Assembly: GCF_000003605.2 (NCBI RefSeq)
Contig: NW_003122908.1
Location: forward strand, 1,216,997-1,252,317
DNA length: 35,321 nt
Source of the DNA: Saccoglossus kowalevskii
Taxonomy: Eukaryota; Hemichordata; Enteropneusta; Harrimaniidae
Direction: 5' to 3'
Under the pieces are notes generated by a model that saw only the letters and a list, made by a program, of their open reading frames with translations, did no database searches and was not told where the DNA came from. A program made the translations under genes and the position numbers. Positions 8,166-32,529 of this stretch are shown piece after piece; the stretch's first letter is position 1; the number at the start of each line of letters is the position of its first letter.

Positions 8166-8317
8166 GAAGGCGAAGAAAAGAGAGAAACCACCAGTTGAAG
8201 AAAAAAAATTGTACTTAGAACCAAAGTATGCAAATATCAAATTGGACAATCTAGATTTTTGTGAGACTGTTAAATTACCTGATGGAATTTGCATAAATGA
8301 ATGGTTAGCAACATTTG
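8166..8317 (+). CDS. MOB2: MOB2 exon encoding the N-terminal region
   Basis: The acceptor TTTCTCACGCAG ends at 8165 and the donor GTAAGT starts at 8318. The exon opens with one base completing a codon, then encodes KAKKREKPPVEEKKLYLEP through to EWLATF, and ends in phase 1. The donor sequence TTTG/GTAAGT is the founder of the 40-bp repeat that follows. Confidence 0.9.
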
Positions 8318-11300
8318 GTAAGTTACTATTAGTTTTGTTAGACAATGTTGTCATTTGGTAAGTTACTACCTGAATTGTTAGACAATGTTACCATTTAGTT
8401 AGTAAGTTACTACCTGTATTGTTAGACAATGTTGCCATTTGGTAAGTTACTACCTGAATTGTTAGACAATGTTACCATTTAGTAAGTTACTACCTGTATT
8501 GTTAGACAATGTTGCCATTTGGTAAGTTACTACCTGAATTGTTAGACAATGTTGCCATTTGGTAAGTTACTACCTGAATTGTTAGACAATGTTGCCATTT
8601 GGTAAGTTACTACCTAAATTGTTAGACAATGTTGCCATTTGGTAAGTTACTACCTAAATTGTTAGACAATGTTGCCATTTGGTAAGTTACTACCTGAATT
8701 GTTAGACAATGTTACCATTTGGTAAGTTACTACCTGAATTGTTAGACAATGTTAACATTTGGTAAGTTACTACCTGTATTGTTAGACAATGTTGCCATTT
8801 GGTAAGTTACTACCTGAATTGTTAGACAATGTTGCCACTTGGTAAGTTACTACCAGTATTGTTAGACAATGTTGCTATTTGGCAAGTTACTACCAGTATT
8901 GTTAGACAATGTTCCCATTTGGTAAGTTACTACCTGTATTGTTAGACAATGTTCCCATTTGGTAAGTTACTACCAGTATTGTTAGACAATGTTGCTATTT
9001 GGCAAGTTACTACCAGTATTGTTAGACAATGTTCCCATTTGGTAAGTTACTACCTGTATTGTTAGACAATGTTCCCATTTGGTAAGTTACTACCAGTATT
9101 GTTAGACAATGTTGCTATTTGGCAAGTTACTACCTGAATTGTTAGACAATGTTACCATTTAGTAAGTTACTACCTGTATTGTTAGACAATGTTGCTATTT
9201 GGCAAGTTACTACCTGAATTGTTAGACAATGTTGCCATTTGGTAAGTTACTAGAATAGAATGTTCACTGTGTCATTAACAGTTAACTTTTGTATATCAGC
9301 CCTAAAAATTAAATTAACCATGATACCGGTACTGCTTTTGGCCAAATCAAAGACACCTTTCAAACCTGATTGGCTCAAATATATCTAAAAAAATTCAAAA
9401 TAATTTAATTTTATCTGGATTCCACTCATCCCAAGAACTATGGCCAGATTTTTCAGCTAGTATGAATGAAATGTGTGATTAGTTAGTTACCATTGATTGT
9501 AGCAATAATACAAATGTACTATAAATATTTTGTTGTACTGTTAATGCCAATCTATGTGCAACAACCACGCATGTACTTGTTCTGACCAATAGAATTTTGG
9601 AATGCTAATCTCCATATTTGCCGGTATCTATGGAAACAAAATGGGCGATATTGTCTGACATGTAATTTTTTTTCAAGAACTCAAAAATACAATCCGAGAC
9701 AATCAATCGATATTTATTTAAAGTAATCCTATTTCATCCGTAACAAATGGAACTTCGCAATAGATTTCAATCATAGGTTACACACTGATTGCATGGCCAT
9801 TAAAGCCATTTGAATACGTAATATTGAACATAGAAATCACTTGCGATGAGGAACGGTTTCTTGATGGATTTCTGTGAGATATCTCAGTCAGGATCACAAA
9901 AGTTCAAATATTTGAACCTTTGTAATTGGTAACTAACTATACATACTAGTATTGGTTACATTGTGAATGCCAAAAACAACCTTTATTTTCTACTTTAAAA
10001 TTGAGTGATGTGTTACAATTAGAAGAACTCTTTTATTCAGAATTAGACATTCATTACATTTTTGTTTCATTTCCGTTACAGCTATAGCGTTTTTCAACAA
10101 CATTAATCTGCAGTACGGCTGCATATCCGAATTCTGTACGCAGACTCTATGCTCCACTATGTCGGCGCCAAACTCAACGTAAGTGAATTGTTACTTTTCA
10201 ATTATATTATGAAATTATGTTTGAAGTGCATATTTTACTGATTTTATCTTCACACACACATAACATGATTGATGATGTTATTGAAGTCACCATTTAATCT
10301 GCAATTAAATTGCTTTATGAACTGGTGTACCTGACTTTCACAAATTTTGATTGGTCCACTAGTTTGGCAGCCATATTGGATTTCAATTAACTAGAAGTTG
10401 CTATTTGACCTCTTTCTGATAATCAGGGCAGTCTGAATTTGTACTACAACTCATGTGCAATAGATTTAAGTAGTAAAAACTTTAGTGGTCATGTGACTTT
10501 TTCCTTTTAGATGACAAAAAATACTTGAAAATCTTAACAATAAAGACATTGATCTGGTTTTTAGCCGTTATTTGTGGGTGTAAAGCACATCAAAGTTTGA
10601 AAATTGTTTTTGGGTTGGTCACATGGTTGTTTTTGTTTTTTTTCTAAACAGGAAGTACTCTATAAAAATGTTGCAGACATTCATCCAATTATTTTTTAAA
10701 TTTTCCATGTTACATCTCTATATTGAACCCTTTTAAACAGCAAATAAATAATTTGGATCAGTCACATAATTTCATCACCACCAATTTTTTGGTAAAAATT
10801 ACCCAAATTTAGGCAACTTATTGCTAAGAAGTGTAGCATGTATTGCCAAAGCATCTTACAAGAAAATAAGCCATTTTTGATTTCCGGCAAAAATGGCCAC
10901 AATTTGAGGCATTTGTTTCTCATGAGTGTTTTAACCAACCAACTTGATATTTTGCATATAACATATATGGCCAAAGCAATAATATAATAATAAATAAATT
11001 TTGTCTGTCACATCGTTTTTTTGCCACCTAGGATTTTTGAAAAATGCAAAAAAATTGGCCAATCTGAAAGCAGGGGCTGATAGGATTAGGTCATTTGTAT
11101 CTTTGTGTCCACTTGTTTGACTGTTCATTCATTTAGTGTCATATCTGTGAAATTCTTTCATTCTTTCAGTCCAAAAGATTGTTAATTTTTTTTTCTCATA
11201 TTTGACGTTACTTTTATACAGATTTGTTTATATTATTACACTGTCACGGTCGTCACACCCAGTCATGTACGATGTGGGTTCCATGTAACATGTCTACAAT

Positions 11301-12907
11301 TTGTGTGAAGTACATCATTGTTGTGCTGTGTGTCAGCTGTAAGAAGGAAAGCTTTAAAGTGATGTCTTTATTCAAATTCATAGCGTCAGCGAATAATGGG
11401 CACCTTGCTTTGTGCACGACTGTTTAATTCTGGTTTTGCTTTCATGCAGGACTTACACATGGGTCGATGAAAAGGGCAAGAAAAGTAAATGTACGGCCGC
11501 ACAGTACGTGGATTATGTTATGACATCACTGCAGAAATACATCAGTGATGAAAATGTCTTCCCAACAAAATACGGTGAGTTTGTTGAACAATAATTGATG
11601 TCCTCGGCCAAAAACTGATCATGTCTGTTATTATTTGCTTCAGAAAATGAATGTTCTTTTCTGCATACATACTCCTTATTTCATTCCTTGCCTTTATCGA
11701 CTTTGATGAAATGAGCCATCAGATTCTGCAGTGGTACATTAATCACAATAGTGTATCATAGACTATAGAAAACAGTTGTCTATAAGCACATGTACATTTA
11801 CGATAGAACACTGAAATCATGTTTTCCTTAACATCACTTGTTTCCACAGACCTTTGCAAGTTGATGTGTACAGGAAGTGATCTCTATTATCTGTTTTGTA
11901 TGCATTTCATATTGTCCTTTATTTAACATTGAAATCCTAGATCCCCCCTCCCTGTCCATCAGGGGAGAACCAGTTTTGAGTGGTGTGTTGTGTCAGTCAA
12001 AATGGACGTAGTTGGAGGATCCAGTAAATTGCATTATACATGTACAACTGCAAGTATGTGTCAGTGTGCTCTTCTCTGTCAAGAGTTGTTAACCTCTTTA
12101 AGCCCATCTTGAAAGCTTGTAACATGATATCGGATCTTACGAATCAAAACCTCAATTTTAAATAATAAGTTAGATAGAGTTTAGGACAATGTCCCTCCTC
12201 TCCCAGCGGTGCAGCCAGATGATGGTCCCTGCATCAACTGCAGCCTTCTTATGTACATTGGATTTTAATCAGATGTATTTAGTGTGCCCAAACTGATCTA
12301 TTTTATAATCTAAGCCGTTTTCTTTTCTTGACTCATGTGTCATGTACCTAGCCTACAAAATTAGGGAAGACTAAAGAATCTGGTGTGAGGACGCCCTCTT
12401 TAGGTGAACTCAATAGATTGCACCAAGGAGACTGTACACCCTATAGCATGAATTTGAATTTAATGAATCAAAAATAGATTAACATTGGATTCTCTGGATA
12501 GAAAGCTCTCAAAAACGAAATCAGCAAATATAAAGATTGCATACGCCATAACACTATCGTAAGTATTATTGCTAAGCAGTTTAAGTATTTTTAAATGTTT
12601 TTCTGCTTTTTTTTCAGATGTTGTCTTCCCTGCAGACTTTGAAAGCATCATACAGAGGATATTCCGTATGCTGTTCCATGTCATGGCACACATATACCAT
12701 GCTCATTTTGAACACATGGTTCTTCTAGACAATGAAGCTGATCTCCACTGTTTGTTTACGCATTTTATTTACTTTTCACGAGAATTCAATTTACTGGACA
12801 GCAAAGAGACTGTGATACTCGATGACCTCATAGAGCTTTTAGGACTCAACTCTCAGAGCAAATCGAAAGAGGAATCTGTTACTGCAAATGCAACGACAGC
12901 GAGGTAA
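8166..12907 (+). CDS. MOB2: MOB kinase activator 2 (MOB2), four firm coding exons
   Basis: MOB proteins are non-catalytic co-activators of NDR/LATS-family (AGC) kinases; MOB2 binds NDR1/2 in cell morphogenesis and cell-cycle control. Exons 8166-8317, 10082-10178, 11450-11574 and 12618-12907 join in frame to give 220 residues plus a stop. They have the MOB order: KKLYLEPKY near the start, EWLATFAIAFFNNINLQY, EFCTQTLC, a YTWVDEKGKK segment, a VFPTKY segment, then LFHVMAHIYHAHF and SREFNLLDSKE. The zinc ligands are C69, C74, H149 and H154 of this fragment (CxxxxC and HxxxxH). The YLEP start and REFNLLD..ET..DDL tail favour MOB2 over MOB1 or MOB3. The family is about 240 residues long, so only the short N-terminus is unassigned. 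Every junction uses GT-AG. Confidence 0.93.
8314..9252 (+). repeat. 40-bp intronic minisatellite carrying repeated splice donors
   Basis: GTTAGACAAT occurs 23 times between 8338 and 9230, almost always exactly 40 bp apart. Each unit contains ATTTG/GTAAGTTACTA, the same sequence as the exon end and donor at 8313-8328. Counting the genuine donor there are 24 donor-like sites. Twenty read GTAAGT, three of them preceded by A instead of G. Four read GCAAGT. Two identical 120-bp blocks of three units (8861-8980 and 8981-9100) show later block duplication. Confidence 0.95.
9253..10081 (+). other. MOB2: Rest of the MOB2 intron
   Basis: This is non-coding AT-rich sequence after the minisatellite. It ends in the acceptor TTTCATTTCCGTTACAG (10081). 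I see nothing else in it. Confidence 0.7.
10082..10178 (+). CDS. MOB2: MOB2 exon with the zinc-binding CxxxxC
   Basis: It encodes AIAFFNNINLQYGCISEFC and on, through CSTMSAPNS. It holds both cysteine zinc ligands. It begins in phase 1 and ends in phase 2 before GTAAGT (10179). Confidence 0.92.
10179..11449 (+). other. MOB2: MOB2 intron
   Basis: Non-coding and AT-rich, with no repeat array. It ends with TTTTGCTTTCATGCAG (11449). Short ORFs on both strands look like chance openings. Confidence 0.7.
11450..11574 (+). CDS. MOB2: MOB2 exon, central region
   Basis: It encodes TYTWVDEKGKKSKCTAAQYV and on, to VFPTKY. It begins in phase 2 and ends in phase 1 at the donor GTGAGT (11575). Confidence 0.92.
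11575..12617 (+). other. MOB2: MOB2 intron
   Basis: Non-coding. It ends with a long pyrimidine tract, CTGCTTTTTTTTCAG (12617). No other feature seen. Confidence 0.7.
12618..12907 (+). CDS. MOB2: MOB2 terminal coding exon
   Basis: It encodes VVFPADFESIIQRIF and on, including AHIYHAHF (the two histidine zinc ligands) and SREFNLLDSKETVILDDL. The last 25 or so residues are Ser/Lys/Ala/Thr-rich and not conserved, as in other MOB2 tails. Stop TAA at 12905-12907. The tail GAG/GTAAAG resembles a donor, so an alternative C-terminus cannot be excluded. Confidence 0.93.
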
Positions 12908-21136: not shown

Positions 21137-22335
21137 TTATAGACTCCTATAGGATTTTCTATGAATCAATCTATAGGTTCCTGTTCAAATTTTTTATAGG
21201 TTTCTATAGGGCTGCCTATAGGTATTTATAGGCTAATATATAGGTTTCAATAGGTAATTGGAACATAATGCTATAGTTGACCATATAAAATCCTATAGAG
21301 TTACCTATTGGTCAACTTATAGAATCCTATAGAGTAATCTATAAATGGATCTGTATAAATAAGGTACGTTTTTAACCTATATAAATATATTGATCAATGA
21401 ATTAATATATAAGCCTATAGGCCAACCTATAGAAATTTACAAATAAATCTATAGGCCAACTTATAGGAATGTATAGATAACCCATTTAAAGCCTATAGGA
21501 CAACCTGTTAGAATTTATATTAATCTATAGGTCAACCTATAGACCTTTATAGATAACCTATATAAATCTATAGGATAACCTATAGGAATTCATATATAAA
21601 TCTATAGGCTAACCTATAGAAATTCATATATAAATTTATTGGCTAACCTATAGGAATTCATATATAAATCTATAGGCTAACCTATAGGAATTCATATATA
21701 AATTTATTGGCTAACCTATAGGAATCCATATATAAATCTATAGGCTAACCTATAGGAATTCATATATAAATCTATAGGCTAACCTATAGGAATTCACATA
21801 TAAATTTATTGGCTAACCTATAGGAATTCATATATAAATTTATTGGCTAACCTATAGGAATTCATATATAAATCTATAGGCTAACCTATAGGAATTCATA
21901 TATAAATCTATAGGCTAACCTATAGGAATTCATATATAAATTTATTGGCTAACCTATAGGAATTCATATATAAATTTATGCTAACCTATAGGAATTCATA
22001 TATAAATTTATTGCTAACCTATAGGAATTCATATATAAATTTATTGGCTAACCTATAGGAATTCATATATAAATCTATAGGCTAACCTATAGGAATTTAT
22101 ATATAAATCTATAGGCTAGCCTATAGGAATTCATATATAAATCTATAGGCTAACCTATAGGAATTCATATATAAATCTATAGGCTAACCTATAGGAATTT
22201 ATATATAAATCTATAGGCTAACCTATAGGAATTCATATATAAATCTATAGGCTAACCTATGGGAATTCATATATAAATCTATAGGCTAAGCTATAGGAAT
22301 TTATATATAAATCTATATGCCTGCCTATAGAAAAT
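21137..22335. repeat. CTATAGG satellite, 34-bp period, about 1.2 kb
   Basis: From about 21560 to 22320 the unit is a regular 34 bp: CCTATAGGAATTCATATATA, then AATCTATAGGCTAA. Each unit carries two CTATAGG boxes, with start-to-start spacing alternating 22 and 12 bp. CCTATAG and CTATAGG face each other, so one unit can fold on itself. From 21137 to 21560 the same boxes occur with irregular spacing and many substitutions, as expected for the older edge of the array. Confidence 0.95.
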
Positions 22336-23417
22336 TATATATTTAACCAGTTTAAAAAAAAACTCACCAGATATATAGTTAACCATAAATATTTAATATT
22401 TTTGAATCTTCAGAAATTGTATCTGACATAAAGAAGTTTGAAGGAAAAAAATCGTAAAAACTGAAATTACTTACTAATTAGTAATTACTAGTCAGTTGGC
22501 AGAAGAAGCATGTAAATAAAATAAAGTTGACATAACAGAATACTGTAGATAAATTAGCAGCATAGTGTAACAATTAGGATGAAAAATACAGTTGAATTAA
22601 TAAATTTTAACAATTTTAAAAATATCCACACAATATCAAAGCAATCTGGCAGTTTTAACAAGATTTGATGAAATGCCAAAAAATGGAATATTATTATTTT
22701 AAAATTCGTTTACTCTCAGTGTTTAACAATTGAGTAATACCAGCTTTAATCTTTTTTTCATCACCACATCTTGTCTGGTCTTTAATATAACCTGAAAATT
22801 ATCAAGTATAAAATGATCATTATACGTAAACACAACAGTTATTTGTACAATATACACAAACAATAAGTTTATAGATATCAGATAAAAATTGGCTGGGTCG
22901 AAAAAAATCATTTCTGAAAACAGTAAAAATGGCGAGCAACTAATTATTACTCACACTTTTTGTATAATTTTTATTTATTTGAATAGTTTTTGGATTAATT
23001 GATAATCAAAATCTGTTTTCTAGGTAAATAAAAAATAATGCCGGAACACCTTTTAGCAGCTTGTCTTATCATATCATATACAACTATTAGGTAAACATTT
23101 TTTTTTTGGCTTGGTCAAGAAAGTGTTAAATCAGATGCAAACAATTACGAACTATTCTGGGGTTTTCAAACCTTTAGGTTTGTTGTTACTATAGAGATGT
23201 AAAACATTTATTTAGTTTTATGCGTCATTCAAGATGGCGGCCCCCATATAGTAAATATCGCATTTATTTCATTATATCAGGTGTGCGCCAGCTGACTGTG
23301 GGTATAACCAAATGTCGCCAAAAACAAAACGGCGTAATGCTGTCCATGATTAGGTACAGTTTGTTATTCGGGTCTTGTTTGTTGCGCGTTTGTACCTGAC
23401 ATTTTTAGTTTCGAAGT
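22336..23417. other. AT-rich interior sequence, no gene recognised
   Basis: No motif-bearing ORF was found. The complement of AATAAA near 23209 and 23262 could serve as polyadenylation signals for the minus-strand RHIM gene whose stop is at 23501, but this is weak. Confidence 0.4.
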
Positions 23418-23500: not shown

Positions 23501-23646
23501 TTAGTTCGTAGCTTGAGTATAGCGTTTATCTCTGTCAGTGTACGGTGATCGACGTTCTTTCACTACGTCAGCATACATCGTGCACGAGTTCCCAATCTGT
23601 ACTCTAGCGTCCTCACTGATGGTGCATGTGATATTACCTTGAGCTA
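23501..23646 (-). CDS. RHIM gene C exon 3 (RHIM)
   Basis: The acceptor GGTCACCCAG is followed by 47 codons and TAA. It carries the RHIM core VQIG and the conserved QIGxxC spacing also seen in gene A. The stop lies 13 bp from the TCGATTCGTCCC repeat cluster. Confidence 0.75.
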
Positions 23647-24349
23647 CTGGGTGACCTGGTAAGCGACAAAATACAACACATGATTAACAAAGGAATTTCA
23701 AAAAATCACATTTATTGAACCACGTGACAAGACATCAATAAGATAATCGTCTATATATACATAGCATAAATAGTGGCTGGACCCATAATATGGATGATAC
23801 TCACTTGTTACGATCGTCTCTGCCCCGTCGTTTAATGTCTTTCCAACACACCCTGTCATGTCATGTTCGGTATTCAGTTCTCCTCGTACGGTACCGCCTA
23901 TGTTATTATTTGGATTGTCCCTCATAATATGTGTTGGTGGGTTATTAAAGCCCCTTGCGTAATCATTTGGACGAGAATGGGGACCATCCGTTTCCTCGAT
24001 TGGGCGACCTTTTTATATAATAAAATGAACATGGCGACTAGATATAACGCTATTAAATATTAATCAAAATATATTCGAACGTATCTGGTTGGCGTCGTTT
24101 CACAGCGGTGCCCAAGTTACTGTTTATTTCATCGTTTGGTTTGTAAGTTTCAATCTTAGAATACTCTCTGGCTATCGTTATGCGAGGCTGAACAGAACAT
24201 CCAAATAAAATGCACGGCATTGTTTAAGGTATAATGTCAATTGTTATTTCGGTATTAGATTTATATTAGATTTTATATCAGATGAACTTACCATAGGTAA
24301 ACTGTATAAGCCACTCTAACACAATACGCACATAATACAATATACTCAT
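23501..24349 (-). CDS. Small RHIM-containing protein, complete three-exon gene (RHIM gene C)
   Basis: Exons 24349-24292, 24008-23805 and 23646-23501 join with two phase-1 introns (donors GTAAGT and GTGAGT; acceptors ending AAAAAG and ACCCAG). They give 135 residues. Residues 1-19 (MSILYYVRIVLEWLIQFTY) are hydrophobic and could be a signal or membrane-associated helix. Residues 20-87 are a polar Asn/Thr/Asp/Pro-rich linker. Residues from about 92 read GNITCTISEDARVQIGNSC. This has the RHIM core VQIG with a preceding beta-prone strand and a following polar-x-M, as in RIPK1 (IQIG) and RIPK3 (VQVG). A short charged tail follows. There is no enzymatic domain, so it could act as an amyloid adaptor or inhibitor. 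The motif and phases are seen; the function is inferred. Confidence 0.7.
23805..24008 (-). CDS. RHIM gene C exon 2 (polar linker)
   Basis: The acceptor TTATTATATAAAAAG is followed by GT completing a codon, then RPIEETDGPHSRPND and on. It ends GTA ACA A before GTGAGT. The frame is open throughout, and also opens as an ORF from an internal ATG at 23925. Confidence 0.65.
24292..24349 (-). CDS. RHIM gene C exon 1 (hydrophobic N-terminus)
   Basis: The ATG at 24349 is the first after an in-frame stop 12 bases upstream (TGA AGA CAC GTT). The exon ends TAT G before GTAAGT, in phase 1, and completes a Gly codon with the next exon. Confidence 0.6.
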
Positions 24350-24410
24350 AACGTGTCTTCACTGAAACGCGTAGAACAAGAAGTTAACTCTTCGTCGAAT
24401 ATCGCTCGAC

Positions 24411-24416
24411 TTTATA
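24411..24416 (-). promoter_or_regulatory. Candidate TATA box of RHIM gene C
   Basis: On the minus strand CATATAAAG lies about 62 bp upstream of the ATG at 24349. A start site 25-30 bp downstream would leave a 5'UTR of about 35 bases. No other core element is clear. Confidence 0.4.
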
Positions 24417-24419
24417 TGA

Positions 24420-25832
24420 ATTTTATTTATAAAGCACGATGTCATCGCTAAATGTGGTATTACATGTAATTGTTTTCTTATCGCTCCTCGTGGTTTGCCA
24501 CATTTTTTTGTTGCTGGCCTGTTATAGAATATATTTGCGGTGTTGGTCATTACAACACATTTCAATTGTTATAAATTAGTGTGAAATAAACACACGTGAT
24601 AACAACTATTGACTATACATCTAGGAAAATTTATTTTGTTGTTTGATTTAGGTTTAGCCCAAAGTTATGCAAATATGGCGTTACATTTAGGGGTTATTAG
24701 TAAGAATGTGAATTCAGACAAACTTACAAACCGTTGTTTGATATCTATGAAATTAAATGTTAAAGATTTCTCGAATTTAAAAAATTGCTATTTTGGGATA
24801 TTGCCATTAAAAAAAACTTTCAAAATTGTTCCAATATATCACACTTCAAAAATAAAATTATTGATATCTTACATCTTACACCTATTTGTGTTTAATTAAG
24901 AAAAGAAGTTTTAAAAATGGGGAAACTATTGCAATGACAATCCTTATAATAACTTGTTACAGAATTATTATAAAAATTATTTACAAATAAATGTTTAAAA
25001 AAACTGGTCAAGCAGTTGTACAATATGGAAACATTCAATTAAATGATTATTGGAAGTTAGTTAATGAGTGATGAAGTACTGCATAATTAACACTTCAATT
25101 CATTAGAAAAATATTCAATCTATTGCTGATCTCAAACCATGGTGTATTGGTCACATACTCAAATCAGGTGATAGCGATGGTCACCTGAATGGCTAATATA
25201 GTAGGCGCTGTCCTGAGATGACCTTTTACCCACATGACCAAAGCCACGTACTCTGTAAACCCGGAGTAGTTTCGTCAACTATACAAAAAAGTAAATTTGT
25301 ATTGTTTAAGTACAATAATTAATTCCTAGTTTTACTTGTATGTGGGGCACTGTTTTATTTATAATAGCATATAAATAGCATATAGTCGTCGGAATACACC
25401 GACGTCTTCTGTGTCAGCAGAATACACACCTGATAAATTCCATATCCACATATTAAAACCTCTAGCTGTGGTCCATAGCTCTTTTTAATAGTTATGTTTG
25501 GATTTTAGAATGAATAACAGAATAGCTAGCGACCAAATTCACCGGGAAATTAATCAAACCAATCTAGAAGTTATATAGCTGTGGGTCCATATCTCCTCTT
25601 GTGTGGGTTGGTTTTACGTCTTTGTGATGGTATTTTTTAGTAATTTTAGGTACATTAGTTGTTCTTTAAGTTGTGTGTAGATACTGAGAATGTAGCACAC
25701 AGTATCACACAGTACAGAAGAGCAAAACCATAACAAACATGATATAAGCTATATAACCTCCAGCGATCAGATCAGATTCACGTTATTTGCATCACAGACT
25801 TTACAAATATTCGGATTCCATCACAGTGTATT
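24420..25832. other. Intergenic sequence between RHIM genes C and A
   Basis: No exon chain was recognised. A 96-codon plus-strand frame (24609-24899) has no recognisable motif. TAGCTGTGG(G)TCCATA recurs near 25462 and 25578. A short GTCGG/CCGAC hairpin lies near 25388-25403. Confidence 0.4.
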
Positions 25833-26166
25833 TCACAGAGCCGTTTTACCACGTAAATAATTCTCGTATCGTTGTAACAGTTGCATTAATTTGAATTTGT
25901 AAGTGCCGTAGTTCTTATGTGGTGTTATATCCATAACTTTCGTCAACGACCGTTCACATGACTTCAGATGTTCAATATGATCGTTGATATTTGGCAAGTC
26001 CATATTATATATTTCCACATTACTGAGCAAGCACATGGAAGTGTTAATAAGTTCTAATACGATGTTGGTGAGTTCTTCGCCGGGGTTTTCTATTACGTTA
26101 CATTGACTGCCAATCTGAAGTATGTCCCTCCCGCAAAAATGATATCTCCTTGGACCCTGATTAATT
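25833..26166 (-). CDS. RHIM gene A terminal exon (RHIM and C-terminal helices)
   Basis: The acceptor TTTTTCAACTTGTAG ends at 26167. One frame runs from the acceptor to TGA at 25833 and contains LQIGSQCNV. It can be entered from a phase-2 donor, or in phase 1 from a weaker upstream acceptor AAG at 26189. The second frame starts LIRVQGDIIFAGG, which also resembles the start of the gene B RHIM exon (NPVIRGNITVSG), but stops at TAA after 23 full codons. Confidence 0.55.
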
Positions 26167-27224
26167 CTACAAGTTGAAAAACAAGTCGCTTAGAAGTTAT
26201 TAAATATGCATAAAATAACATTTTAAACGATTTGAGTTGAGGGCACAATCCACAAACAAAATATATGAATCAATATCTGCCTATGGGTTCAAGGGAATGC
26301 GAAAATGTTACAATTATTGGGATCGTATGTAATACATACAATGGCATTCGTCAGCGTATAAAATACCGGAATTTGTTTGGTCTGGTGAAAATTAAATACG
26401 CGATGACCCGTTATTGTTATTTTGCTGAGGTGTTAGTTATGTTTATTTCATCTTTACCACGCACGTTTTTCATGTATTGTCTATTTCTATGCGTTGACGA
26501 TTTGACGATTTTCATCATGATCTTGGTTTGTATTATCAAACTTTCTTGCTCCACAAATTTGCGGAGTTCTTGTCGCTCATTCTGACCTGGATGAATGACA
26601 GATTGACCTGTTAGGTGACAGGGGGTGTATCACGTGATACACCTACATGTTATTGTTTGCATTTCTGCATGATTATGTAACCATTCAGCTGATGTCAAAC
26701 ACTTATTTCCGTTAAATAAAGCTGAGAAATTTACCTACTGACTCGATTTTATCCATGATTTTGTTGGTGAATGACGTAACATCACATAGAGACACAGTGA
26801 AATATTATACACATTGGTAATGTCGTTGATATATTTCACTGTGTCTTTTGTCTTTATTTCATGATATCGCAATCCCACTTTGAATCCTGAAAACAACAGG
26901 TCAGTACAGGAATGAAAATGCTATATTATACCATATGAACGTATTATAACATGTATGTAGCGTATGTAAACCGAGAGTAAAACGTAAAAACTTACTTGCT
27001 AAACTGAATAACCAAATCGCCAAATGTTGCGCTAATTTTTTTTGTTTTATACTTTCATTGGACTTTCGACTACTGAATTTTCCGCATGAATTTATCCCTA
27101 CTTTTTTTATTTTGTGTGAAGAAGTTGTCAATACAGACGAAACATCACCATTATGTATTATATGTGAAAGTATATCGAAACTCGAGACAACATGGAATAC
27201 ATATACAAACATAGAAATATTCAT
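25833..27224 (-). CDS. Helix-rich protein with RHIM-like core (RHIM gene A), frame unresolved
   Basis: Candidate exons are 27224-26996, 26886-26735 (or to 26739), 26586-26458 and 26166-25833. The last exon is open for 110 codons. It reads FCGRDILQIGSQCNV, then an 80-residue helical tail ending LLQRYENYLRGKTAL. LQIG and the Cys three residues later align with gene C (VQIGNSC). Exons 1 and 2 join in phase 1 (GTAAGT; TTGTTTTCAG). From there two solutions exist. (i) Exon 2 uses GTAGGT at 26738 (phase 2), skips exon 3 and enters the last exon in the RHIM frame with no break. (ii) Exon 3 (NERQELRKFVEQESLIIQTK and on) is included, which needs one-base slips in exon 2 and in the T5 run at 26135-26139. 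The gene could be alternatively spliced, decayed or affected by base errors. Confidence 0.5.
26458..26586 (-). CDS. RHIM gene A candidate exon 3 (amphipathic helix)
   Basis: The acceptor ATTCATCCAG (26587) and donor GTAAAG (26457) bound 42 full codons. These are rich in Glu, Lys, Gln, Ile and Met with heptad-like spacing. Both ends are phase 1, like the introns of genes B and C. Confidence 0.45.
26624..26643. repeat. Perfect 20-bp palindrome with a central CACGTG
   Basis: GGTGTATCACGTGATACACC reads the same on both strands. Its centre is a CACGTG E-box. It lies in the intron between candidate exons 2 and 3 of RHIM gene A. Confidence 0.9.
26735..26886 (-). CDS. RHIM gene A candidate exon 2
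   Basis: After a strong acceptor (CCTGTTGTTTTCAG) the frame reads FKVGLRYHEIKTKDTVKYIN and on. It is open to a TAG at 26737-26735, directly before the donor GTAAAT. A second frame opens after a TAA at 26807-26805 and reads DVTSFTNKIMDKIESV, which looks like an amphipathic helix and is in phase with exon 3. The donors GTAGGT (26738) and GTAAAT (26734) are four bases apart. Confidence 0.45.
26790..26846 (-). repeat. Perfect 16-bp hairpin inside RHIM gene A exon 2
   Basis: AGACACAGTGAAATAT (26790-26805) is exactly complementary to 26831-26846, with a 25-base loop. It lies wholly within the candidate exon, so a transcript would carry a strong stem-loop. Confidence 0.8.
26996..27224 (-). CDS. RHIM gene A candidate exon 1
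   Basis: It begins MNISMFVYVFHVVSSFD, a moderately hydrophobic start preceded by an in-frame TAA. It then encodes a Ser/Lys-rich stretch and AQHLAIWLFSLA, ending in phase 1 at GTAAGT (26995). It may be an internal exon trimmed by an acceptor within it if the membrane exon at 28003 is the true start. Confidence 0.4.
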
Positions 27225-27924
27225 TTTATTTTATTCATCATTATTTTATTCATGTTGTTACTGCTGCTGCTGTCATTTTGGTTGTTTCTCGTGAAGTACC
27301 GTTGATGCACTCAAATTTCACTCACCACAATGCTGTACATAGTTTGTTAAATTAACATAACCTTATACATGTAGAGTTAATAACAGAGTCAGCGAACAAC
27401 GCCTTTATTTTATCTTGGGGTTCGAATAGCCGGTTCTTGCCAATCAGTTTCTGTGCAGGCGCATAACGTAAACAAGTGCTGCCGTATATCCACATGCCGT
27501 GTGAGCATAGCAATGACCTTGGACATAATAATTTGTTTTTCCCAACGAGTAATAGGTATTTTAAATACTTGTAATTGACCCATTTTCTGAACGCTGTTTT
27601 CTGTCAGTGATCACAATGGTTTAAAACAACAATTATGTCTACATAACATAAAGAACATTTTGTGCAATTCACGTTTACTGTCTTCCGGCGGTCTGGGGTG
27701 GGATTTCCCCATGTTTTAAGCAACCTGGAATATTGATTGCCCCGTGAATGGGCGGATATTTGATGCAAAAATATTGAAATTCTGACGGACATCCTGTTTC
27801 GAAGAAAACTATGAAAAATGTCACATTCTCTGAAGGTAAAATCAGCTGTTACCCTGGGTTAAGTAATAATAATAATGACACTCATAGTGACCCACACCCC
27901 TGGACCTTGGTCAGTAACAACTAC
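27225..27924. other. Intron or intergenic sequence between the membrane exon and RHIM gene A exon 1
   Basis: No clear coding exon. A 62-codon minus-strand frame (27604-27792) lacks a recognisable motif. A short CTG run lies near 27261-27272. Confidence 0.35.
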
Positions 27925-28003
27925 CTCTGTAAGGTACGGTAAAACACGTGCGTGAAAACATCACGACAACTAATATGATGACGATAACCACGTAGAAGAA
28001 CAT
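27925..28003 (-). CDS. Candidate first exon encoding a membrane helix
   Basis: The ATG at 28003 starts MFFYVVIVIILVVVMFSR followed by TCFTVPYR. It ends in phase 1 (AGA G) before GTAGTT at 27924. Fifteen or so strongly hydrophobic residues followed by Ser-Arg are typical of a signal anchor or signal peptide. The phase matches exon 2 of RHIM gene A (joining as Gly-Phe-Lys) and the phase-1 pattern of this locus. It would be a first exon for RHIM gene A or an alternative one. The upstream sequence CACTTTTTCAG/CACACC resembles an acceptor, so a 5'UTR exon may precede it. Confidence 0.4.
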
Positions 28004-28368
28004 GGTGTGCTGAAAAAGTGGCGAAATTCTGATATTTCACAAGTACATCTAGACAATTCAATACATAAGTTGTGGTGTTGTTATCCCAATCTAACTTTAT
28101 GTACTACATGATGTCATTCCATTGTTTTGTGTGTAATCTGACAGTATCATATTAATCATACATGACCTACATGACCCTTTGGCCGTTCAGAAGGTCCCCG
28201 GGTATTTCTAACGTCGATGCTGATATTTTTGGTCCCCGCAAAAAGTTGCTTTATTGAAATGTAGGAGAACGTCATTTGTTTTTGTGACATCACACGCAAA
28301 TGAGACCTACAGCTAATACGATTCATGCATCTAACTACAGACTGTATGTGAAATACGTTCTTTTGTGT

Positions 28369-28369
<1 letters not shown>

Positions 28370-28459
<90 letters not shown>
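28370..28459. repeat. (AAT)n microsatellite, about 30 copies
   Basis: An uninterrupted AAT/TAA run of about 90 bp, ending at AAGG near 28460. The poly-Ile frame it produces on the plus strand is not a gene. Confidence 0.98.
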
Positions 28460-28646
28460 GGATTATGAACACTTTAAGTGTTTTTAAAGCTGGATAAGCT
28501 TTACATATTTTACTCCCACAGCAGTATTTTAAATAGAAATGTTTATGTGTTTAAGTACAAGTGTAGAAAAAAATGTGTCTAATAACATTTAAAATCTCAC
28601 GCTTGCCATTTTTTTAGCAATTGCTCCTCTCATAGTATTGAGATTG

Positions 28647-29047
28647 TCAAATCAAATTATTTATATGATCGCGATAGTTCACTCCTTCTTCATCTATTCG
28701 TTGATCTGTACATTCATGGGGTCTGGTATAATTTCTATTCGTCATGTTAGACGCTTGTCTACATGATAATGACGGAACTTCTGCCACATTCTGCATTCGC
28801 TTATCGTGGCACTCCTCCTGTGCACACCGAACTTCAGGGCGTGGCATACGAGTGGCAGCGGAACAGTGGACATTAATGCAATCATTGACGTTTGATTCGG
28901 GGATCGAGCTGTGAGTATCACTTGCTGTAACCGCTGTTTCGGTTTCCCGTGCAACAGAGCGTACAGGCACATTCATCGTTTGATTGTTTCCTATCTGTAC
29001 ATTGGCATTGCCACTGACTGTGATGTTGCCACGAATAACTGGATTGC
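28647..29047 (-). CDS. RHIM gene B terminal exon (RHIM and tail)
   Basis: It opens with GC completing a Ser codon. The RHIM core VQIG is encoded at about 29001-28990. The frame is open for 132 codons to TGA (28649-28647), long for this AT-rich sequence. Confidence 0.7.
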
Positions 29048-29534
29048 CTAGAATTCCAAATCATAAAACAACGATTATTGATTACATATAAACACACGTT
29101 CGTACTCTCAAGAATAACAACTCTGAGATGGGGGTTGACGAATGTGTTACATGTGGCTAGAAACTACATACATATAGGCACCATTATTATTTCTATTATT
29201 ATCTACCATCTTCGAAATCTCTGTATGATCAGCTTTCTAATATAGCTAGTATATACACGTGTTCTTTAACCACGTCGTGAAAGCATCTTTCTACTTACTT
29301 GGCATCGCCCTGTCTGCGGCTGAAACAGCAGTCTGAAAACGAGTACCATGCACATCAGTGTTGTTATGTACGCTGGTGTCGCTCGGAATTCCACTATTTG
29401 CTTGTGTATTTGTAGTAGTGGTTTTCTTTCTTGGTACGCTCTCGTCTGCACCCTGTGCGATACCTTGAAGCTGGTTTCCCATGTTTTCCCCCAAGTTTTG
29501 ATCGTTTGAATCGATCGGCAACTGCACTGGACAC
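28647..29534 (-). CDS. RHIM-containing protein, 5' end missing (RHIM gene B)
   Basis: Exons 29534-29299 and 29047-28647 join in phase 1 (donor GTAAGT; acceptor GGAATTCTAG) to give about 210 residues. The first encodes a low-complexity Asn/Gln/Thr/Ser-rich linker. The second begins NPVIR, then GNITVSGNANVQIGNNQTM, which has the RHIM core VQIG, a preceding beta-prone strand and NxxxM after it. A 110-residue Cys/Arg/Thr-rich tail of unknown fold ends INNLI. No start codon is convincing in the first exon, so at least one exon lies upstream. It may lie within 29535-30070 or beyond the retrotransposon. The layout (linker, then RHIM exon entered in phase 1) is the same as in gene C. Confidence 0.65.
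29299..29534 (-). CDS. RHIM gene B linker exon
   Basis: The acceptor ACATGTAACAG at 29535 (or GTGTCCAG at 29527, which would keep phase 1) precedes QLPIDSNDQNLGENMGNQLQ and on. The donor GTAAGT is at 29298. The composition is polar and probably disordered. A second frame is also open, but its phase does not fit the RHIM exon. Confidence 0.55.
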
Positions 29535-30594: not shown

Positions 30595-31098
30595 TTAAGA
30601 CACAAAGAAAACATGGTTAAGCAAAGAAATGTATGTTGAACAGTATAAAACTTTTAATACAACAACAGCATATTGTAAAAAACTAAATTTTCGGAAAAGT
30701 AGAATAGAAGTAGTTGCCGTGGTGCCCGTATATATTGTTTGGCAGCAGTCTGGACCAAGTTTAATTTCCCAATCTGTAATATCTGAAGCGGCTGCAGTTG
30801 TAACCCCTTCACTACGAAAACTATGCCCACCGTAAATTGCCTGGGTCATGTCCAATGTCCTTAAATTTGAACTTTAAACGAGTAATGACAAATCCGCGCG
30901 TGATGGGCTCTGAAGGAAACAGTGCCAAAGTAGAATATACCCCCTTACTAATACGTAACTTATGAAAATAAGAAAGTACATGAACTGCACAGATGTGTGG
31001 GACAACCTAGTACTACATCTACACTTTAACAGTCTGATTGATGTCATAAACACGAACAATGTCTCTTCTGAAGCTGGCAAAGTTTTCCCATTAATCAT
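30595..31098 (-). pseudogene. Tyrosine recombinase remnant
   Basis: The segment near 31098-31000 has LPASEETLFVFMTSI, like the N-terminal SAM-like domain of these recombinases. The segment near 30835-30735 has YGGHSFRSEGVTTAAA and ends QTIYTG. This supplies the HxxR pair and the catalytic Tyr of the family's C-terminus. The two are in different frames. They distinguish the element from LTR retrotransposons, which use a DDE integrase. Confidence 0.7.
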
Positions 31099-31786: not shown

Positions 31787-32350
31787 TTACTGGAAACCCA
31801 AACTCTGAACAACAGTCGAGCATACCATTAAGAATTCCATGACACTACTTTCTATGTGCATTGTCGACAGTAATGTAGTCATCCAGATAGTGTTCCACGT
31901 TAGAAAAGAAAAATGTTTACGCACGATATACTGCATAGCATCTGTAAATTTGTTGAACAGGAATGGACTACTATGCAAGCCAAATGACAACACATAAAGT
32001 AATATGTTTTTGACTGTTCTCATCTGTCTATGTCAAGTTCCAAAGAACACCTGAGTAGCTCTCAGTTTGCTGGTCGTACTGGGATCTGATAAAAGGCATC
32101 TTCAAGGTTTACCTTTGCCAGCAGAACCCCTTGCCGGATCGAAGAACATGTTACAGTTAGTTGTTGTATAAGTACACGTGTATTGTTCTTTGCAAATACC
32201 ATCATTTATGGACTGCCCTTGTGGCCGTGAGAGATCATGGATGATGCTGTACTTTCCACTGTTTATTTTAGATCGTGCTGCAAGTAGGGATGATACAAAT
32301 GATGATGAGGGAGGCTCGTGCATGGGACCGGCTTTGTAACCTTTGGCCAC
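31787..32350 (-). pseudogene. Reverse transcriptase remnant
   Basis: The segment 32350-32102 has KGYKAGPMHEPPSSSF and SIIHDLSRPQGQSIND, the RT start typical of DIRS-group elements. The segment 32023-31787 has LSFGLHSSPFLFNKFTDAM. After a frame change the catalytic box HYLDDYITVD is found at about 31895-31866. At least two frame breaks make it non-functional. Confidence 0.75.
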
Positions 32351-32529
32351 TTTATTCAGTTTTCTTGGTAATTGCTGTTTTTACATTTTAGACACTGTTT
32401 CAGTTTTTGGAAAGAATGGGCACCTCCTCCTTGATCCAGATGAGGAGTTTTTCCGTCAGTTTTTCGTCAGGCTGGTCGTAAGTAGTTTTGGCCATTAGTC
32501 ATAGTTAAAACTGCATGCATGGTTTGCTT

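What the first reader, a model, noticed from the sequence alone, without database searches (positions are those of the whole stretch)
23501..29534. Tandem cluster of three RHIM-like genes on one strand
Three consecutive minus-strand gene models each have an exon with a RHIM-type core: VQIG at about 28990-29001, LQIG at about 26109-26120 and VQIG at about 23593-23604. The match goes beyond the tetrapeptide. A GNIT-type strand precedes the core in B and C, and a polar residue or Cys and then M or V follows. RHIMs form hetero-amyloids in necroptosis and innate immunity. Small RHIM proteins encoded side by side, with no kinase or death domain in sight, would be a new kind of locus: adaptors, decoys or a combinatorial amyloid signalling set.
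Basis: partly seen in the sequence, partly recalled or inferred. Interest (0 to 1): 0.92.

Follow-up and report, generated by a model that had tools for sequence, protein, structure and literature searches.

The report
Clustered small RHIM-like motif genes
An unnamed animal-like genome carries, side by side, a few small related genes whose best-kept part resembles the short sticky motif that immune and cell-death proteins use to build signalling fibres; whether these proteins really form fibres is untested.

Summary
The motif observation holds: VQIG (29000-28989), LQIG (26120-26109) and VQIG (23602-23591), all minus strand, in open frames. It is not chance. A RHIM-core DNA pattern has 16 matches in the 572-Mb genome, and 4 lie within 38 kb here. 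A second, partial A-B pair lies 31-33 kb away on the same contig and strand; what aligns between the copies is centred on exons. Conservation peaks on strand-VQIG-strand: A and A' agree at 22 of 27 residues there and 4 of 17 beyond. A, C and the outside gene B' give open gene models with phase-1 introns. B as assembled is out of frame just before LQIG, and A' is a truncated exon.

RHIM membership is not shown. Pfam RHIM matched none of the exons or cores; the A core has a sub-threshold Het-s match (E 0.028). No kinase, death, TIR or CARD domain was detected in the 82 flanking frames scanned.

Best reading: a locus-restricted family of small amyloid-motif proteins, RHIM-like but outside the RHIM profile. 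Fibre formation, topology, LC8 docking by B' repeats and an immune role are inferred.

The parts
29299..29482 (-). Gene A, exon 1 as modelled from an ATG (MGNQ...); start uncertain, an upstream exon is possible
   Evidence: Open frame, donor GTAAGTAG, phase 1; no hydrophobic first exon found upstream; no other copy in the genome
28647..29047 (-). Gene A, last exon with GNIT strand and core VQIGNNQTM (VQIG 28989-29000)
   Evidence: paralogue A' 57% identical, E 6.2e-8; Het-s profile E 0.028 and Gp5_C E 0.0021 on the core, both under cut-off
27925..28003 (-). Gene B, exon 1: hydrophobic N-terminus MFFYVVIVIILVVVMFSR...
   Evidence: Aligned with B' exon 1 and 53 bases upstream of it; phase-1 donor GTAGTTGT
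26458..26586 (-). Gene B, middle exon (helical-looking); donor chosen for phase
   Evidence: 26520-26585 aligns with B' exon 3; model
25833..26166 (-). Gene B, last exon with core LQIGSQCNV (LQIG 26109-26120) and a ~75-residue tail; frame broken upstream of the core relative to B'
   Evidence: B' 49% identical, E 2.6e-14; out of frame with homologous splice sites
24292..24349 (-). Gene C, exon 1: weakly hydrophobic N-terminus MSILYYVRIVLEWLIQFTY
   Evidence: Donor GTAAGTTC, phase 1; under the hydropathy threshold of the exon-1 scan
23805..24008 (-). Gene C, exon 2: polar linker
   Evidence: Phase 1 to phase 1, weak acceptor; no other copy in the genome
23501..23655 (-). Gene C, last exon with GNIT strand and core VQIGNSCTM (VQIG 23591-23602)
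   Evidence: only other genome matches are A and A'; flank similarity to A reached by 2 of 2000 shuffles

Best explanation
A small, locally duplicated gene family encodes short proteins whose best-kept part is a strand-turn-(V/L)QIG-strand block, an amyloid signalling motif of the RHIM/HET-s kind that lies outside the RHIM profile. Shown by sequence: the motif cluster, the A/A' and B/B' paralogy, exon-centred conservation, a core kept better than its surroundings, and phase-1 gene structure. Inferred: the block stacks into cross-beta fibres, so that A (no anchor found), C and B' (N-terminal hydrophobic segment, perhaps a membrane anchor with the motif in the cytosol) can self- or co-assemble and act as adaptors or brakes for a signalling or cell-death complex whose kinase or executioner is encoded elsewhere. 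Speculative: six TQ repeats of B' bind LC8 dimers, which hold chains in register and ease fibre nucleation.
For: 4 of 16 genome-wide core matches within 37.9 kb; paralogy; C's only other matches are A and A'; four collinear exon-overlapping DNA matches between the two copies; core against tail in A/A': 22 of 27 against 4 of 17 identical, NG86 dN/dS 0.34 against 0.94; Het-s profile match of the A core at E 0.028, seen in 0 of 30 shuffles that keep VQIG; tetrad (V/I)Q(V/I/L/C)G (PMC9444067, passages) met by A, A' and C; six TQ motifs spaced 26-27 residues in B', 3 of 6 full TQT, LC8 motif definition from PMC10046861 (passages).
Against: No Pfam RHIM match, though one of 30 shuffles reached RHIM at E 0.19; Het-s and Gp5_C matches are under cut-off; B/B' begin the tetrad with L and their flank similarity to A, A' and C is weak (35, 105 and 155 of 2000 shuffles); YN00 gives dN/dS 1.12 for B/B'; B broken, A' truncated; N-terminal segment could be a cleaved signal peptide; no partner found; no RNA, expression or fibre data.
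Confidence: 0.5

Rival explanations
1. The conserved block is a small beta-arch or beta-solenoid folding element of a fast-evolving orphan family; VQIG is a packing constraint and the proteins form no signalling fibres.
For: Best profile match of the A core is Gp5_C, a beta-helix repeat (E 0.0021, under cut-off), and A' matches it too (E 0.067); no RHIM match.
Against: Only a single short block is present rather than a run of repeats; tetrad and hydrophobic residue at +8 follow the RHIM pattern; Het-s match.
Confidence: 0.27
2. The hydrophobic first exon is a cleaved signal peptide and the proteins are secreted; the motif, if amyloid, serves an extracellular material or defence function.
For: First exons end at a phase-1 intron right after the hydrophobic stretch, a layout common for signal peptides (recalled); GNIT is also a glycosylation sequon (recalled).
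Against: No basic residue before the hydrophobic stretch in B and B', basic residues after it (sequence), which fits an N-out anchor; A has no such exon found.
Confidence: 0.13
3. A decaying cluster: relics of an older gene pair, little or none of it expressed.
For: B out of frame and A' truncated; tail dN/dS near 1 in A/A'; YN00 above 1 for B/B'.
Against: A, C and B' are open over their full modelled length with GT/AG sites; core dN/dS 0.34.
Confidence: 0.08
4. Chance tetrapeptides in unrelated frames.
For: The bare tetrapeptide is expected 0.72 times in long frames of this window.
Against: Clustering, paralogy, constraint centred on the core.
Confidence: 0.02

Closest known systems
RHIM proteins (RIPK1, RIPK3, ZBP1, TRIF; RIPK1-like proteins of zebra mussel, Lingula and lancelet, PMC12119088, passages)
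   Same: Tetrad VQIG in A, A' and C; hydrophobic residue at +8; strand before the core
   Different: No Pfam RHIM match; Q or C instead of N at +6 (N recalled as typical); no kinase, TIR, Z-alpha or death domain detected; short proteins in a cluster
HET-s / PP / BASS amyloid signalling motifs (PMC7889193, PMC12261475, passages)
   Same: GN-turn strand layout; weak Het-s profile match of A (E 0.028); motif at or near the end of small proteins; clustered genes
   Different: Cut-off not met; one copy of the motif, not two; no NLR or pore-forming partner detected nearby
[quoted passage not shown]
   Same: Divergent RHIM-like segment in invertebrate proteins, one of them membrane-bound
   Different: No PGRP or death domain detected here; here the tetrad is intact in A and C, in insects it is altered
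CARD-RHIM gene of bivalve iridovirus BiIV1 and its bivalve relatives (PMC12452177, passages)
   Same: RHIM proteins without a kinase in an invertebrate setting
   Different: No CARD detected here; sequences not compared; host of this window unknown
Multivalent LC8 clients such as ASCIZ (PMC10046861, passages), for B' only
   Same: Six evenly spaced TQ motifs, 3 of 6 with full TQT
   Different: No known LC8 client with an amyloid motif was looked for; binding untested

Membership tests
RHIM | Core tetrad (V/I)-Q-(V/I/L/C)-G (PMC9444067) in A, A' and C | tested here: met
   VQIG in all three
RHIM | Core tetrad (V/I)-Q-(V/I/L/C)-G in B and B' | tested here: not met
   LQIG: L at the first place
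RHIM | Match to Pfam RHIM PF12721 at its cut-off | tested here: not met
   Not listed at E up to 10 for the exons or isolated cores of A, A', B, B', C
RHIM | N at +6 and M/L at +8 after the tetrad start (recalled consensus) | tested here: inconclusive
   +6 is Q (A, A') or C (B, B', C); +8 is M, L, V, I, M in A, A', B, B', C
RHIM | Carried by a kinase, TIR, Z-alpha or death-domain protein | tested here: not met
   None detected in the exons or in 82 of 122 flanking frames of 75 aa or more; shorter exons not scanned
RHIM | Forms amyloid fibres and binds other RHIMs | not testable with these tools
   Needs peptides
HET-s family motif | Match to PF11558 at its cut-off | tested here: not met
   A core 14.8 bits against 32.2; others not listed
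HET-s family motif | Two motif repeats and a partner NLR gene beside it | tested here: not met
   One block per gene; no NACHT or NB-ARC in 82 flanking frames scanned
Multivalent LC8 client (B' only) | Repeated motifs anchored by TQT (PMC10046861) | tested here: inconclusive
   6 motifs, 3 of 6 with full TQT, spacing 26-27; binding not testable

The most novel reading that the evidence does not exclude
A kinase-free, locus-encoded amyloid signalling set: a soluble protein (A), a membrane-anchored protein (C) and an LC8-zippered membrane-anchored scaffold (B') share one RHIM/HET-s-like motif and co-assemble, with duplicated partners lost reciprocally between the two copies of the locus.
Probability: 0.15. 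Interest if true: 0.82.

Novelty: new variant of a known kind. Interest (0 to 1): 0.5.

Why it matters
The best-known animal RHIMs sit in kinases, sensors or adaptors with other domains. [quoted passage not shown] A clustered family of minimal motif proteins lying between RHIM and HET-s would be a cheap, concrete test of that question and of how amyloid adaptors arise, duplicate and are regulated.

Tried and rejected
RHIM membership by profile: rejected (L002, the place's one hit over the cut-off, was looked at). Solved relatives: the A exon gave one hit at E 0.67, profile A1 gave 16 at E 0.057 or worse, B' none at E 1. One search's rows share GN or QIG pieces, toxin entries among them, and were not followed. 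Viral relatives: 13 and 31 stretches matched a peptide pattern, none confirmed by tblastn. NCBIfam: none for A and C; B' three weak matches, best DbpA 20.8 bits against a cut-off of 210. PHROGs: weak only, best E 0.0035. Pfam on the B' repeat exon: 12 weak families, best Isochorismatase 24.8 bits against 27, taken as repeat artefacts. Structure: B' last exon at pLDDT 62, helices only; Foldseek 225 matches at E up to 10, none at 0.001. B' repeat exon at pLDDT 32, uninformative. A hydrophobic first exon for A: none found; with the relaxed settings the held 93 kb has 21 minus-strand and 16 plus-strand candidates, so such an exon is weak evidence without a paralogue. Mollusc test by PF14830: no hit, control silent, so inconclusive. 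Further copies: none found, but N stretches of 18.6 kb and 8.4 kb flank the second copy. Kajava 2014 (srep07436) is not held; known only through other papers' passages.
Full report
Setting. The window is contig C1550:1216997-1252317 of an unnamed 572-Mb genome in 4830 contigs. Spliced exons and a Mob1/phocein exon (12563-12907, E 1.5e-20) fit an animal. I could not name the phylum: molluscan haemocyanin PF14830 was not found, but that search's control was silent too.

Observation. The three cores are on the minus strand at 29000-28989 (VQIG), 26120-26109 (LQIG) and 23602-23591 (VQIG). In frames of at least 50 codons the window holds 4 extended core matches against a mean of 0.11 in 300 shuffles; the fourth, at 30779, is probably chance. 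A stricter DNA pattern has 16 matches in the whole genome against 3 for the reversed control, and 4 of the 16 lie within 37.9 kb here: A, C, A', B'. B itself does not match it, since S replaces N. I read the other 12: 3 have a stop inside the core; 9 lie in frames of 50 codons or fewer (those 3 included); 2 of the 3 long frames are near-identical copies; by eye none has the preceding G(N/D) strand. A Poisson estimate for the clustering is 1.7e-14, but the four are linked by duplication, so it overstates independence.

Relatives. In single-protein searches of the genome, A finds A' (57%, E 6.2e-8) and two matches at E 1.68 and 9.79 elsewhere. B finds B' (49%, E 2.6e-14) and one at E 0.0995 with stops; B' finds B (E 2.2e-13) and two at E 2.66 and 3.11. 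C finds only A (E 0.68) and A' (E 1.99) besides itself: weak E-values, but both in this cluster. With the QIG core left out, the flank similarity is reached by 0 of 2000 shuffles for A-A', 2 for A-C, 10 for A'-C, 35 for A-B', 105 for A'-B' and 155 for C-B'. So A and C are probably related; descent of B/B' from the same ancestor is plausible but not shown by sequence. Three non-core exons searched, the B' repeat exon at E up to 1 and A exon 1 and C exon 2 at E up to 10, found only themselves.

Second copy. A' and B' lie about 26 and 21 kb beyond the window's end, on the same strand and in the same order. Blastn between the copies gives nine matches. Four are collinear and each overlaps an exon (A last exon, B exon 1, B middle exon, B last exon); the B exon 1 match also takes in 53 bases upstream. 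The other five, of 15-32 bases, look like chance. Introns otherwise do not align, which argues for selection on exons. An 18.6-kb run of N separates the copies.

Gene models. C: exons 24292-24349, 23805-24008 and 23501-23655, 138 aa. A: 29299-29482 and 28647-29047, 194 aa. B': four exons, 336 aa. The introns are phase 1 with GT/AG ends. For A and B' this follows from the open frames; in C I chose the exon chain by phase (one acceptor is weak), and in B the middle donor, so there the agreement is partly by construction. B, read with the sites homologous to B', runs out of frame and meets stops at the place of the core; compared with B' it is one base shorter in a T-run just upstream (sequences). 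That may be a true lesion or an assembly error. A' ends early and shows, by eye, no phase-1 acceptor. The working set may be A, C and B', an apparent reciprocal loss (inference).

Constraint. Between A and A', 22 of 27 residues around the core agree and 4 of 17 after it (Fisher p 0.0003). NG86 dN/dS is 0.34 for the core (0.085/0.252) and 0.94 for the tail (0.507/0.539), 0.61 over all 44 codons. For B/B' over 89 codons NG86 gives 0.52 but YN00 1.12, which is against constraint; YN00 failed for A. All are short pairwise estimates.

Family tests. Pfam RHIM was not listed for any exon or isolated core at E up to 10 (the tool's filters drop most matches above about 0.1). One of 30 VQIG-keeping shuffles of the A core reached RHIM at E 0.19, so the profile can respond to such peptides and does not respond to the real ones. 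The A core matches Het-s 218-289 at E 0.028 and Gp5_C at E 0.0021, both under cut-off; neither was listed for the 30 shuffles at E up to 1. That points to a GN-turn beta-arch that suits HET-s-like amyloids and beta-helix repeats alike. I call it RHIM-like and do not file it as RHIM. Of 122 frames of 75 aa or more listed for the held 143 kb (49,882 bases N), I scanned 82 against Pfam and left out 40, among them the exons scanned before. Six families matched at E 0.001: Mob1/phocein, Lig_chan, zf-Mss51, Adeno_E3_CR2, CorC_HlyC and YjhX_toxin. None is a kinase, death, CARD, TIR or NLR domain; shorter exons would be missed.

Mechanism. RHIM and HET-s motifs signal by templated cross-beta stacking (PMC7889193, passages; PMC9444067, passages). 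The simplest reading is that A, B' and C stack through the block. B and B' have no basic residue before their hydrophobic N-terminal stretch and basic ones after it, which fits an N-out, C-in anchor; C's stretch is weaker. B' adds six repeats, VE..TQ[TKA][DE], spaced 26-27 residues, 3 of 6 with full TQT; LC8 clients carry TQT-anchored motifs that can be bound in register (PMC10046861, passages). LC8-aided nucleation is speculation. The B' tail is predicted helical at low confidence. Possible partners are open: PMC12119088 (passages) reports RIPK1-like RHIM proteins in zebra mussel, Lingula and lancelet, whereas PMC9573974 (passages) found RHIM only in vertebrate RIP kinases.

Literature. Searches combining RHIM with molluscs, HET-s, oyster, spiralia, insect Imd, invertebrate genome expansion, Nematostella and tandem listed no paper whose title or opening abstract describes such a cluster; this covers open-licence PMC papers and listings only. 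PMC9835746 (passages) reports no RHIM in the transcriptome of one nemertean and the genome of another. PMC12452177 (passages) reports a CARD-RHIM gene in a bivalve iridovirus with bivalve relatives.

Verdict. A real, non-random, locally duplicated motif family with its best-kept part on the core; RHIM identity not met by profile; amyloid and immune function untested.

Noticed in passing
L013:4753-5310 (C1550:1274753-1275310, minus strand), outside the window: B' repeat exon: six 26-27-residue repeats with TQ motifs like multivalent LC8 sites; no other copy in the genome at E up to 1, structure model uninformative.
   Followed up: partly
window 28004-28025 and 24350-24375; C1550:1278365-1278380: Acceptor-like stretches ending in AG lie 6-12 bases before the start codons of B, B' and C, which could mean a 5' untranslated intron or spliced-leader trans-splicing.
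   Followed up: no
window 12563-12907, plus strand: Mob1/phocein exon (E 1.5e-20); looks MOB2-like from memory.
   Followed up: no
window 31787-32380, minus strand; L013:2296-2892, minus strand: Frames that look like retroelement remnants (reverse transcriptase-like and gag-like, recalled resemblance; the Pfam scan listed no such family).
   Followed up: no
window 21559-22342 and 8312-9252: Satellite-like arrays: 34-bp unit, 23.1 copies, and 40-bp unit, 23.4 copies.
   Followed up: no
window 30779 (minus strand); L013:3351-3611 (minus strand): Two further core-like strings, LQIGKLNLV and FQIGKNLQM just downstream of B', in frames with no known relatives; probably chance.
   Followed up: no
L044 (C4445:196523-196548, minus strand): IQIGNNCKF core in a 44-codon frame elsewhere in the genome; not clearly chance.
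   Followed up: no
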